This document shows positions 3,172 to 63,791 of a stretch of DNA of 64,000 nucleotides, one piece after another. A program made the translations under genes and the position numbers. The stretch is from Candidatus Helarchaeota archaeon (GTDB lineage Archaea > Asgardarchaeota > Lokiarchaeia > Helarchaeales > HEL-GB-A): assembly GCA_013375455.1 (NCBI GenBank), contig JABXJT010000004.1, positions 55,927 through 119,926 of the forward strand, written 5' to 3'. Numbering within the stretch: position 1 is the stretch's first letter; each line of letters starts with the position of its first letter. The notes beneath the pieces were generated by a model. That model did no database searches, was not told the DNA's origin, and was given only the letters and a program-made list of their open reading frames with translations.

Positions 3172-3708
3172 TTACTCAATCTTAATAGTCCATATTGTTT
3201 CGCGTCCTTTTTTACCTTCGCGCTTGACTTTTCCAGAAAGTACCAATTCTAGAAGATAGCGTCTGATTGTTTTTCGATTGTATCTGAAATATTTCCGCAA
3301 TTCGGAGATCGTCAGTCTCTGTTGCTCACACAGGACATCTACCATTCTTTCCTTTACTGGTTTTGTTTTCGGTTTTTTAGTGGAGGTCTTGGGATAAAAG
3401 CTTTTGGCAAATTTTAGTAATGCTTGATAGTTCTGTTGTGCTTCTCCACTATCTAGAAATAGCAATAATAGATTCATATCTTCAGAAAAAGCCACGACTG
3501 AAAAATTCTCGAAGAAAATCGCCCGTGGTTTGATGCCGTTGCCACTTTGAAACATTAGATAAAATGGCGTGCAAAATTGATCCAAATCCAATTCAAATTC
3601 CTTTGCAAGTGTTTTTTTCCATTCAACTATCGGTCCCTTTAATGTATCGAATCCAATCATGGCTATCGATTTAACTTGGTCCGTCGTTAGGTCCATCTTT
3701 ATTTTCAC
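3172..3708 (-). CDS. Longin-like domain fused to winged helix
   Basis: This 178-residue protein has an N-terminal domain (about residues 10-105) beginning IAMIGFDTLKGPIVEW. That resembles longin/roadblock-like small domains, which often open with a strand followed by a Gly-Pro turn. The C-terminal 70 residues are a winged helix (VLCEQQRLTISELRKYFRYN, then RKTIRRYLLELVLSGKV). Its start lies 38 bp inside the end of the upstream Arf-like GTPase gene, so the two are translationally coupled. A GTPase-linked sensor that binds DNA is a reasonable inference, not shown. Confidence 0.6.
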   Translation of the reverse strand: MKIKMDLTTDQVKSIAMIGFDTLKGPIVEWKKTLAKEFELDLDQFCTPFYLMFQSGNGIKPRAIFFENFSVVAFSEDMNLLLLFLDSGEAQQNYQALLKFAKSFYPKTSTKKPKTKPVKERMVDVLCEQQRLTISELRKYFRYNRKTIRRYLLELVLSGKVKREGKKGRETIWTIKIE

Positions 3709-4189
3709 CCATCTCAGTTGCTTTTAATAATTCCTTAATTAAAATATAGTACATTTTCTCTTTTTGGCGGGGATTGATTGCTGTAATTCCATAAGTCGGG
3801 ACGTGTAAGACGTTTTCTACTCTTTTAGCACTAAAATGCCCATCCATATCCTGTTTATTTGCTATTGCTACGACTCGTGCGTTTTTTTGAGTTCTGCTTA
3901 CCCACTCTATAAGTTGTTTTGTTTGAAGCACATTTTGGGGGGTTGAATCTGTTACCACAAAAACGAGATAAGAACCATTTAAATATTGGTTCCAAAAGGG
4001 TTGAAAAGCAGCTTGACCGCCAATATCCCAAAGTTTTACCTCATGTTCTCCAAATTGAAGGTTTCCGAAATCTAATCCTATTGTGGGCTTATAGTCTAAT
4101 GGTGGAACTTCTCCTGAGAGTAATTTAATCAATGTAGACTTCCCGACTGAAGGCGCTCCTAAAAAGGACACTTTTACACTGGTACCCAT
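3671..4189 (-). CDS. Arf/Sar-like small GTPase
   Basis: The G1 P-loop GAPSVGKST, the G3 WDIGGQ and the G4 NKQD are intact. The WDxGGQ and NKQD forms are those of Arf/Sar/Arl GTPases rather than Ras/Rab. I chose ATG at 4189 (MGTSVKV), because the longer frame from 4204 adds only five residues. A glycine right after Met could allow N-terminal modification as in eukaryotic Arfs, which is inference. The gene overlaps a longin/winged-helix gene downstream, the kind of partner expected for an Arf-type GTPase in Asgard archaea. Confidence 0.88.
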   Translation of the reverse strand: MGTSVKVSFLGAPSVGKSTLIKLLSGEVPPLDYKPTIGLDFGNLQFGEHEVKLWDIGGQAAFQPFWNQYLNGSYLVFVVTDSTPQNVLQTKQLIEWVSRTQKNARVVAIANKQDMDGHFSAKRVENVLHVPTYGITAINPRQKEKMYYILIKELLKATEMGENKDGPNDGPS

Positions 4190-4362
4190 TCTATTCCATC
4201 TCACTTAGCATTATTTGTTAAAAAAATAGCAGTAGAAAAAAGAATTAAAAGCACGTAATATTGTGATATTTGCATCTGATCTAAGTGACATTAGGCGAAT
4301 ATTTCAAAAGCAAAAATGGATTTCATATTATGATTAGAGTCATGCAATAGTAGGGGTTAAGA

Positions 4363-22597: not shown

Positions 22598-23351
22598 GTG
22601 TTCGCACCCCCCGGACATTATCTGATCTTCGCAGATAACCGGACTCGGGTACGACCGAGCCATAACAATTTTTTCCCCTGATGGCAGACTTTTTCAAGTT
22701 GAGTATGCAATTGAGGCGGTTCGAAGAGGAACAACTGCAATTGGAATTAGATGTAAAGATGGAGTTGTATTAGCAGTTGAAAAAAGAGTATTAAATTTAC
22801 AAGAACCTGAATCGGTTGAAAAGATTTTTGATATTGATGCTCACGTTGGAGCTGCCATTGCGGGATTGACTGCGGATGCACGAGTTTTGATTGATAATGC
22901 TAGAATTCAGTCACAAGTTAACAGACTTTATTATAATGAAGCAATAAGCATCCCAATGTTAACAAAAAAAATCTGTGATTTAAAGCAATTATACACGCAA
23001 CACGCAGGAGTTCGTCCATTTGGAGTTTCATTATTAGTTGCAGGAGTTGATGATGCTCCGAAATTGTTTATGACAGATCCGTCTGGTGCGTTTTGGGGTT
23101 ATCGGGCTCAAGCTATTGGGTCAGGTGCCCAAACGGTCCGTGAAGAACTAGAAAACGAGTATGACGAAAGCAAATCAATAGATGAAATCATCGTAATAGC
23201 TCTGAAGGCATTGAAAAAGGTAATCGAGGCCGATTTAGATCCGACAAAAGCTGAAATTGCAATCATTAAAACGGATACCAAAAAATTTGAACGCCTTTCT
23301 CTTAAAGAAATGGAGAATTATATCAATCAGGTTAATGATAGCGGCACGTGA
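22598..23351 (+). CDS. psmA: Proteasome subunit alpha, interrupted by a BHB intron
   Basis: The alpha ring subunit of the 20S proteasome. Reading starts at GTG 22598 after the site gaggtg. Exon 1 is 22598-22616, and removal of 22617-22644 joins it to exon 2 at 22645-23351, giving 241 residues. The spliced N-terminus is MFAPPGLGYDRAITIFSPDG, which matches the archaeal PsmA gate region (compare Sulfolobus, which has GYDRAITIFSPDG after a short lead). Unspliced, the frame ends at a stop after 27 codons, and no ATG, GTG or TTG starts exon 2 before residue 75. Downstream GGVRPFGVS-type and IGSGAQTVREEL segments are normal (here AGVRPFGVS). First gene of the superoperon. Confidence 0.93.
22617..22644 (+). 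other. 28-nt bulge-helix-bulge intron in psmA
   Basis: Folding gives an outer helix ACCC 22606-22609 with GGGT 22647-22650, extended by TCG 22602-22604 with CGA 22652-22654. A C-C mismatch follows, then the 4-bp central helix CCGG 22611-22614 with CCGG 22639-22642, the 5' bulge ACA 22615-22617, the 3' bulge ACT 22643-22645, and a 7-bp inner helix TTATCTG 22618-22624 with CAGATAA 22632-22638. Cutting after the second bulge nucleotide at both sites removes 28 nt and joins codon C|TC in frame. Confidence 0.92.
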
Positions 23352-24073: not shown

Positions 24074-24108
24074 AATTGGATACTAAGGAAAATATTGAGG
24101 TGTTTTTA

Positions 24109-24834
24109 ATGAGTATATTTTTTGAGAAGAAAAAAATTGTAGTCCCCGGAGAAAACCTTGCCGAAGGGAAATATAGGGCAGGTTTCGGCACTTATAAGGA
24201 TAAGGGGTTGATTAAAGCATCGATCATAGGATTGCCTGAACTTAGAAATAATTATATTACAGTAATCCCCCTTCAGGGAGCGTATATATCAAAATAATTG
24301 ATGACGTAAATCCCTAAAGTGGGAGATCTTGTAATTGGTAAGATAATAAATACCACTATAGTATCTTGGAAAATTGACATTAATTCTGCGTATACGGCAA
24401 CACTTCATGCATCTACCGTTTTAGATCGATCTTTTAATCCATTGAAAGATGATATTCGAAGACATTTTGAAGTAGGAGACATAATAGCTGCAGAAATAAC
24501 TGCTTTTAATCGTACAAGAGATCCAGTATTATCCTTAAAAGGAAGGGGATTAGGGAAATTAAGAAGAGGTCGGATAATAGAAATTATTCCGGCAAAAGTT
24601 CCCCGATTAATTGGGAGAAAGGGTTCAATGATTAACCTGATAAAAAATGAAACAAATTGTAGGTTGATAATTGGACAAAATGGGCGAGTATGGATGAGTG
24701 GAAAAACACTCGAAATTGAACTGTTAATTGAAAGATTGATTCGTAAAATAGAGAAGGAAGCCCATACATCTGGTTTAACAGATAGAGTGAAGGAATTAAT
24801 TCAAGAAGAAATGAAAAATCTTGAGGTGAGTTAA
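24109..24834 (+). CDS. rrp4: Exosome RNA-binding subunit Rrp4, interrupted by a BHB intron
   Basis: Rrp4 forms the RNA-binding cap of the exosome. ATG 24109 follows gaggtg. Exon 1 (24109-24285) encodes the N-terminal domain and exon 2 (24310-24834) the S1 and KH domains; removing the 24-nt intron gives 233 residues. The joined sequence GAYIPKVGDLVIGK is the expected link between the N-terminal and S1 domains. Unspliced, translation stops at TAA 24295-24297. The KH signature is VPRLIGRKGSMINLIKNET. The gene ends directly at the rrp41 start codon. Confidence 0.94.
24286..24309 (+). other. 24-nt bulge-helix-bulge intron in rrp4
   Basis: This is a textbook BHB: outer helix AGGGA 24275-24279 with TCCCT 24311-24315 (extended by CTT with AAG after one mismatch), central 4-bp helix GCGT 24280-24283 with ACGT 24304-24307 (one G-U pair), 5' bulge ATA 24284-24286, 3' bulge AAA 24308-24310, inner helix TATCAA 24287-24292 with TTGATG 24298-24303 and a 5-nt loop. 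Cutting between bulge nucleotides 2 and 3 joins TAT directly to ATC with the frame kept. The intron holds an in-frame TAA. Confidence 0.95.
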
Positions 24835-33123: not shown

Positions 33124-33210
33124 GCCGGCGTGAACCGAAATGGATAGGTGGCGGCCTGCAGTTTTATAGGAGATAGCCGTATTATGAGGGTTCGAGTCCC
33201 TTCGCCGGCT
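33124..33210 (+). tRNA. tRNA-Cys (GCA) with a 13-nt anticodon-loop intron
   Basis: Acceptor GCCGGCG 33124-33130 pairs with CGCCGGC 33203-33209, and discriminator U is at 33210, as expected for Cys. The anticodon stem GCGGC 33151-33155 pairs with GCCGT 33176-33180; anticodon GCA is 33158-33160. The variable loop is ATTAT and the T-arm GAGGG-TTCGAGT-CCCTT. The D-arm is short of one base and has G where A14 is usual. CCA is not encoded. The intron follows nucleotide 37, the standard archaeal place. cysS lies 1.6 kb downstream. Confidence 0.88.
33162..33174 (+). other. 13-nt intron in tRNA-Cys, position 37/38
   Basis: Between G37 at 33161 and A38 at 33175 lie 13 nt (ttttataggagat). With the anticodon stem as outer helix, CTGC 33156-33159 can pair with GGAG 33169-33172 (one G-G mismatch) as the central helix. 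The bulges are then AGT 33160-33162 and ATA 33173-33175. Cutting between bulge nucleotides 2 and 3 gives exactly this intron. The inner helix is reduced to a 6-nt loop. Confidence 0.8.
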
Positions 33211-44393: not shown

Positions 44394-45102
<709 letters not shown>

Positions 45103-63176: not shown

Positions 63177-63791
63177 TTATCTTTCCTCTTTAATTCTTCT
63201 GATTTCATCTTCTAATTTTGCGATTCGGCTATCCGTGGGGGTTGATGGTAGAGCAACGCCAGTCTCTACTGCAATTTCCTGATTAATTTCGTTCATAGTT
63301 CTTTGAACATCAGAATCCTTGATCTCCGTAGATACTGTAATCTCCTCGAGACCACCTTGGGCCACTTCCTGTGTCATCTCGAAATGCTCAATTTGTGAGT
63401 CGATATTATCAACAAGTTGGGCGATATTTTGGGTGCGCACGGCACTTTTTAATGCGCCCAATGCGTTTGTTATACCCCCTAATATTTTTGCCGTTTCAGC
63501 AACAGCTTGTGATTGTTTTAATTTCATCAACAAATTCATGATATGTAAGCGGTAAGCATCAACACCCATTGCCCATTTCTGATATCGCACAAAATGTTCA
63601 GCATACAACTTTGCCGAGTCCGAATTTCCATCCATTTGATATTTTTTCGCCTTAGTTCGATTATTTCTCGCTTCTTTCTCTAGTTGCTTCCTTTGCCGAT
63701 CTAATTTTCGGGTAAAAACATCAACTTTAAAAATGATATCATTTAAATTGGCTCCCTTCAACCAATTTACAAATTTTCTCCAAGCGCCCAT
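63177..63791 (-). CDS. Second ESCRT-III (Snf7/Vps2-like) protein
   Basis: A 204-residue helical protein: basic start (GAWRKFVNWLKGANLNDI), a long alpha1-alpha2 hairpin (LDRQRKQLEKEARNNRTKAK, then LYAEHFVRYQKWAMGVDAYR), ALKSAVRTQNIAQLVDNIDS, and an acidic C-terminus ending with a charged helix (RIAKLEDEIRRIKEER). The pattern resembles the Vps2/Vps24 side of the ESCRT-III family, whereas the gene at 59.7 kb looks more Snf7-like; the assignment to sides is tentative. Confidence 0.8.
   Translation of the reverse strand: MGAWRKFVNWLKGANLNDIIFKVDVFTRKLDRQRKQLEKEARNNRTKAKKYQMDGNSDSAKLYAEHFVRYQKWAMGVDAYRLHIMNLLMKLKQSQAVAETAKILGGITNALGALKSAVRTQNIAQLVDNIDSQIEHFEMTQEVAQGGLEEITVSTEIKDSDVQRTMNEINQEIAVETGVALPSTPTDSRIAKLEDEIRRIKEER

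What the first reader, a model, noticed from the sequence alone, without database searches (positions are those of the whole stretch)
24270..24325. Textbook BHB intron of 24 nt in the exosome gene rrp4
Between the N-terminal and S1 domains of Rrp4 lies an insertion carrying an in-frame TAA. Outer helix AGGGA/TCCCT, central helix GCGT/ACGT, bulges ATA and AAA, and a 6-bp inner helix make a canonical hBHBh structure. Excision at bulge positions 2|3 joins TAT to ATC and yields GAYIPKVGDLVIG, the family consensus. The structure and the protein homology were derived independently and agree to the nucleotide.
Basis: partly seen in the sequence, partly recalled or inferred. Interest (0 to 1): 0.96.

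Follow-up and report, generated by a model that had tools for sequence, protein, structure and literature searches.

The report
tRNA-type intron inside exosome gene rrp4
In an archaeon that is likely a Helarchaeon (Asgard group), the gene for the RNA-exosome subunit Rrp4 is interrupted by 24 bases with a stop codon, which are predicted to be cut out of the messenger RNA by the enzyme that normally splices transfer RNA.

Summary
Bases 24286-24309 interrupt rrp4 with an in-frame TAA and sit in a bulge-helix-bulge (BHB) fold; removing them gives a 233-aa Rrp4 that matches the family end to end. One correction: protein homology fixes the junction only to 24286-24289; the BHB picks 24286. Hel_GB_A (Helarchaeota) has an insert at the same site, 25 nt long and different inside. 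Of 38 nearest database hits aligned, the window's own left out, 18 are fragments starting at this site; 10 of 11 small N-terminal hits stop just past it. In a tree the split genes form one clade with one intact member nested inside, which carries the predicted junction GAYIPK. Three of four Helarchaeal genomes encode a crenarchaeal-like splicing endonuclease alpha subunit and all four RtcB. The same 64 kb holds two more likely interrupted genes, psmA and pcm. The kind is known (cbf5); the gene and the Asgard lineage are new in the papers searched. Splicing itself is untested.

The parts
24109..24285 (+). rrp4 exon 1 (59 codons, N-terminal domain), start ATG 24109 preceded by GAGGTG 24097-24102
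   Evidence: Pfam ECR1_N_2
24286..24309 (+). predicted BHB intron, 24 nt, with in-frame TAA at 24295-24297
   Evidence: relatives
24310..24834 (+). rrp4 exon 2 (S1 and KH domains)
24275..24279 (+). outer helix, 5' strand AGGGA
24280..24283 (+). central 4-bp helix, 5' strand GCGT
24284..24286 (+). 5' bulge ATA, predicted cut after 24285
24287..24303 (+). inner 6-bp helix TATCAA/TTGATG with 5-nt loop
24304..24307 (+). central helix, 3' strand ACGT (GCGT in Hel_GB_A)
24308..24310 (+). 3' bulge AAA, predicted cut after 24309
24311..24315 (+). outer helix, 3' strand TCCCT
22617..22644 (+). likely second BHB-like intron, 28 nt, in psmA (proteasome alpha subunit; gene name recalled)
44553..44583 (+). 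likely third BHB-like intron, 31 nt, in pcm (fragment carries PF01135; gene name recalled)
33124..33210 (+). predicted tRNA-Cys(GCA) gene with a 13-nt intron (33162-33174 as placed by ARAGORN, insertion position 38-39)
   Evidence: second of two option sets; not found

Best explanation
Bases 24286-24309 interrupt rrp4 and are likely a tRNA-type (BHB) intron, predicted to be cut from the mRNA by splicing endonuclease EndA and the exons joined by the ligase RtcB. Shown: the insert, its stop codon, the fold in silico, the restored protein, the same split in relatives, and EndA-family and RtcB genes in related genomes. Inferred: that the pre-mRNA folds so, that EndA cuts after 24285 and 24309, that RtcB joins the exons to code TAT-ATC (Tyr-Ile), and that the 24-nt piece is released, perhaps as a circle. 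Tree and junction sequences suggest one gain in a Helarchaeal clade and one precise loss.
For: Fold and geometry. Spliced protein: Pfam ECR1_N_2, RRP4_S1 and KH in order; archaeal Rrp4 3l7z_C, E 4.8e-54 over residues 3-228, with a one-residue gap beside the junction. Hel_GB_A insert: 25 nt, so frame-shifting; CTTCAGGGAGCGTA and CGTAAATCCCTAAAGTGGGAGAT kept, inside diverged, one central pair U-A changed to U.G. Database: of 39 hits aligned (the best 39 of 120 listed), 19 begin at [V/M]GD or one residue on, P0002 being the window's own, and 20 are intact (P0003/P0004 and P0029/P0031 are near-duplicates). Of 12 small N-terminal hits, P0121 is the window's own, 10 others end at GAY plus 2-10 residues, P0132 reads through intact. 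Three of the ten (P0125, P0126, P0128; P0126 reads as Hel_GB_A's own) end in VNP, the conserved 3' intron edge read in the shifted frame. Exon-2 tree: 17 split rows and the intact P0001 form one clade (96/88), P0001 inside it (95/85). Enzymes: EndA alpha-type genes in G002, G003 and G004 with a second EndA-family gene in each; Lys-Pro-Lys in the alpha type aligns to K44-P-R46 of 3p1z_B; RtcB in 4 of 4. Predicted intron-bearing tRNA-Cys in the window.
Against: No RNA reads or protein data. The window's own genome is not held, so its EndA was not seen; in Hel_GB_A (G001) only the beta-type gene was found, not the catalytic alpha type. Hel_GB_A lacks the inner helix (z -1.6, 17 of 200 shuffles fold as well). 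DNA was in hand for only two intron-bearing genes, so helix covariation could not be tested. Silent-site conservation at the junction is only suggestive (10 of 12 codons identical against 95 of 167, p 0.06). Identities of the split hits are over exon 2 only, the better conserved part.
Confidence: 0.93

Rival explanations
1. rrp4 is truly split into two genes: an N-terminal domain peptide and a separate S1-KH protein starting at GTG 24319, as public annotation of a relative shows.
For: A relative is deposited as two proteins with neighbouring tags, HWN66_15080 and HWN66_15085; the first start codon of exon 2 is GTG 24319.
Against: ATCCCTAAA (Ile-Pro-Lys) before the GTG would be untranslated, yet it is identical in Hel_GB_A and codes the same residues as the intact, nested P0001. 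Read by eye: no GAGGTG-like site in the 20 nt before 24319, while rrp4 (24097-24102) and the next gene (24823-24828) have one. The tails after GAY vary: ISK, IS, ISD, MKKLKRSVNP.
Confidence: 0.04
2. Ribosomes hop over the insert (translational bypassing, as recalled for T4 gene 60).
For: The insert is short and structured.
Against: Bypassing needs matched take-off and landing codons (recalled). In the window the frame leaves at TAT or ATA and resumes at ATC after TAA; in Hel_GB_A it leaves at TAC or ATG and resumes at ATC: no match. Length changes from 24 to 25 nt with the 3' BHB edge kept.
Confidence: 0.02
3. Pseudogene, or a sequencing or assembly error.
For: Likely metagenomic source; the frame is broken.
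Against: The same site is split in 18 of the 38 non-window hits aligned, from several sources, and in the named genome Hel_GB_A; the rest of the frame is open and conserved.
Confidence: 0.01

Closest known systems
cbf5 pre-mRNA intron of Desulfurococcales and Sulfolobales (Watanabe 2002, cited there, not read; Yokobori 2009, PMC2738675, passages and conclusion read)
   Same: Short BHB-like intron in a protein gene for RNA metabolism, predicted cuts between bulge positions 2 and 3, linked to hetero-oligomeric EndA, one gain with lineage losses, mis-annotated genes.
   Different: Another gene and another lineage (Asgard), 24-25 nt (cbf5 sizes of 33, 36 and 39 bp are named in the passage read). 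cbf5 itself is uninterrupted in the four Helarchaeal genomes searched.
Archaeal tRNA BHB introns
   Same: Same fold and presumably the same enzymes; a predicted intron-bearing tRNA-Cys lies in this window.
   Different: Host is an mRNA, and the exons must keep a reading frame.
HVO_1309 5' UTR intron of Haloferax (PMC7714728, passages read)
   Same: EndA-cut BHB in an mRNA.
   Different: It is outside the coding sequence.
Putative introns predicted in other archaeal and viral protein genes, incl. 12-bp viral inserts (mentioned in PMC2738675)
   Same: Short inserts in protein genes proposed as introns.
   Different: Splicing was not shown there; rrp4 is not named in the passages I read.

Membership tests
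BHB intron | 4-bp central helix between two 3-nt bulges on opposite strands | tested here: met
   for the window; in Hel_GB_A the 5' bulge merges into a loop (relaxed form)
BHB intron | Cutting between bulge positions 2 and 3 restores the host product | tested here: met
   same residues in intact P0001
BHB intron | Insert absent from relatives at the same site | tested here: met
   by the table, 77 of 82 other genomes of the class match; 75 of these cover the site without a break there, 2 (G005, G082) match only from residue 106-107 on and leave it unseen; 20 intact rows
BHB intron | Host lineage encodes EndA and RtcB | tested here: met
   relatives only: alpha type in 3 of 4 genomes, RtcB in 4 of 4; the window's own genome is not held
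BHB intron | Excision and exon ligation in vivo | not testable with these tools
   no transcript data
BHB intron | Compensatory changes in the helices | tested here: inconclusive
   only two DNA sequences; one U-A to U.G in the central helix, inner helix not kept in Hel_GB_A
cbf5 intron family | Located in cbf5 | tested here: not met
   host gene is rrp4
Group I or II intron | Ribozyme core | tested here: not met
   24 nt; Rfam at gathering threshold finds only one tRNA in the window
Translational bypass element | Matched take-off and landing codons | tested here: not met
   sequence reading; the criterion is recalled

The most novel reading that the evidence does not exclude
Helarchaeia are a lineage in which tRNA-type introns have escaped into mRNAs of core genes and are still moving: rrp4 (one gain, one precise loss), psmA (two different sites in two genomes) and pcm, three in 64 kb. 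A loop-bearing heteromeric EndA tolerant of imperfect BHBs, with RtcB, forms an mRNA-splicing system without a spliceosome in kin of the eukaryotic ancestor, and splicing of rrp4 gates exosome supply.
Probability: 0.5. Interest if true: 0.88.

Novelty: new member of a known kind. Interest (0 to 1): 0.7.

Why it matters
A 2020 paper says that besides the mRNA it describes only the cbf5 intron had been reported as a BHB intron of this sort in archaea (PMC7714728, passage read). A conserved intron in an exosome gene of Asgard archaea, with two more likely interrupted core genes beside it, would suggest that mRNA splicing by the tRNA machinery arose more than once and may be spreading in kin of eukaryotes. 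It also means that gene prediction can truncate core proteins in these genomes: one relative's rrp4 is deposited as two proteins.

Tried and rejected
Structure-only search is too weak: 75 loose BHBs in the window; 485 candidates in 1,416,197 bases once open frames are asked for. A strict scan with coding score in 291,516 bases (window, Hel_GB_A stretches and five other loci) left 3 candidates, rrp4 among them; the one in L106 reads to me like a gene border, the one in L114 was not examined. The first version of that scan had too high a coding cut and missed rrp4 itself. A relaxed scan gave 129 candidates, 60 of them printed; many look like gene borders by eye and only two in L106 and one in L110 were translated. 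So I make no genome-wide count. Viral contigs: no relative. The genome-contig scan kept 80 of 319 loci. The N-terminal tree has few columns, and three rows (P0023, P0026, P0039) were trimmed wrongly; I do not rest on it. In the exon-2 tree I left out P0002 (the window itself), P0004, P0013 and P0031 as duplicates or near-duplicates, and, by choice, P0040, P0042-P0047 and P0049-P0120, among them two shorter fragments, P0046 and P0062. My note first put the psmA insert at about 22621-22648; one search gives 22617-22644.

Full report
WHAT IS THERE. The rrp4 frame opens at ATG 24109 and meets TAA at 24295-24297; the S1-KH part continues after 24309. Removing 24286-24309 gives a 233-aa protein with ECR1_N_2, RRP4_S1 and KH domains in order that aligns over residues 3-228 with a solved archaeal Rrp4 (3l7z_C, E 4.8e-54). 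The removed 24 nt are the core of an hBHBh fold: 5 outer, 4 central and 6 inner pairs, two 3-nt bulges, cuts predicted at bulge positions 2|3. The fold is -11.4 kcal/mol, z -3.8 against 200 dinucleotide shuffles, 1 of which folds as well.

CHANCE. At fixed length 24 the same geometry occurs at 5 of 2,821,578 tested positions on both strands of the window and 103 loci (some overlapping), this site included. The loose motif by itself is common (75 in the window) and would prove nothing without the frame.

RELATIVES. No genome is held for the window. Its Rrp4 is nearest to proteins of which several are named Helarchaeota, so the source is likely a Helarchaeon. In the one DNA relative with the split that I could fetch, Hel_GB_A (L013, SUPS01000269.1), an insert sits at the same site but is 25 nt and shifts the frame. 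The 14 nt that run into the 5' bulge and 23 nt across the 3' edge are identical to the window, while the inside has diverged. Exon identity is 70% over the last 150 nt of exon 1 and 85% over the first 150 nt of exon 2. Its fold keeps outer and central helices and the 3' bulge, without an inner helix (z -1.6): a relaxed form.

In the protein database I aligned the best 39 of 120 listed hits: 19 are fragments starting at this site, the window's own P0002 included, and 20 are intact. The intact ones are 57-75% identical to the window protein, the split ones 77-99%, but the latter over exon 2 only. Of 12 small N-terminal hits, P0121 is the window's own, 10 others end at GAY plus 2-10 residues, and P0132 is intact across the site. 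Three of the ten (P0125, P0126, P0128) read through a frame-shifting insert to ...VNP and stop, i.e. through the conserved CGTAAATCCCTAA edge; P0126 reads as Hel_GB_A's own. On the exon-2 tree (17 split, 21 intact rows) the split rows form one clade (96/88) with a single intact row, P0001, nested inside (95/85); starred branches force two changes, read here as one gain and one loss. P0001 has QGAYIPKAGD without insertion, which is what the predicted splice gives. By the table for 83 genomes of the class, 78 match; of the 77 besides Hel_GB_A, 75 cover the site without a break there and two match only from residue 106-107 on; a few are in two pieces elsewhere, and one (G083) shows a TGA inside its match.

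MACHINERY. EndA-family genes: two each in G002 and G003 and in G004; one, of the beta type, in Hel_GB_A. I call 'alpha' the type closest to 3p1z_B (E 3.9e-45; Aeropyrum pernix, organism recalled) and 'beta' the other, closest to 1a79_A; the second gene of G004 was not read. The alpha type has KPK aligned to K44-P-R46 of 3p1z_B. That crenarchaeal loop and its Lys are proposed to serve relaxed substrate recognition (PMC12397907, passages read), which would fit the imperfect BHBs seen here. RtcB is in 4 of 4 Helarchaeal genomes. The window carries a predicted tRNA-Cys with a 13-nt intron, a likely EndA substrate in the same cell; it was not found.

MORE THAN ONE GENE. psmA in the window is interrupted by 28 nt, 19 nt after the likely start GTG 22598; removal gives VFAPPGLGYDRAITIF, which other archaea such as L009 have uninterrupted, with a BHB-like fold with one C-C mismatch in the outer helix (z -2.4). 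In Hel_GB_A psmA is interrupted between MFAPPGLGYDRA and ITQFSPDG, six codons further on by my reading. pcm in the window is interrupted by 31 nt; Hel_GB_A has [21 protein letters not shown] uninterrupted, the same as the spliced window sequence there. The pcm fold is imperfect (z -1.6), and the one non-window hit to its N-terminal piece, P0134, is split at the same place. These two are likely, not certain.

ALTERNATIVES. Two separate genes: the Ile-Pro-Lys codons before the would-be start are kept, no GAGGTG-like site precedes it, and a nested relative is fused. Bypassing: no matched codons. Error or pseudogene: recurrent across sources and genomes. Silent-site conservation near the junction points the right way but is weak (p 0.06).

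LITERATURE. cbf5 in Crenarchaeota is the known case (PMC2738675, passages and conclusion read); the same paper notes putative introns predicted in other protein genes and in a virus, without shown splicing. In 2020 cbf5 was called the only other such BHB intron reported (PMC7714728, passages). Asgard tRNAs can be very intron-rich: 92-95% of tRNA genes in three genomes (PMC11291895, passages). No report of BHB introns in Asgard protein genes, or in rrp4, showed in the listings of my searches, which cover open-licence PMC papers only.

VERDICT. A BHB intron in rrp4, confidence 0.93; a new member of a known kind, in a new gene and lineage, with signs of a wider set. Actual splicing remains to be shown.

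Noticed in passing
window 22617-22644: psmA (name recalled) has a 28-nt insertion near its start with a BHB-like fold; removal restores FAPPGLGYDRAITIF.
   Followed up: partly
L013 about 261-291 (by reading): Hel_GB_A psmA is interrupted about six codons downstream of the window's site, suggesting independent gains or intron movement.
   Followed up: partly
window 44553-44583: pcm (name recalled) has a 31-nt insertion; Hel_GB_A pcm (L124) is uninterrupted, and one database relative (P0134) is split at the same place.
   Followed up: partly
window 33124-33210: Predicted tRNA-Cys(GCA) with a 13-nt intron, missed by the default tRNA scan and by Rfam at gathering threshold, found by ARAGORN with introns of 10-150 nt allowed.
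   Followed up: no
window 3674-4204 and 63180-63791: Small Arf/Ras-like GTPase and Snf7 (ESCRT-III) domain genes, in keeping with an Asgard archaeon.
   Followed up: no
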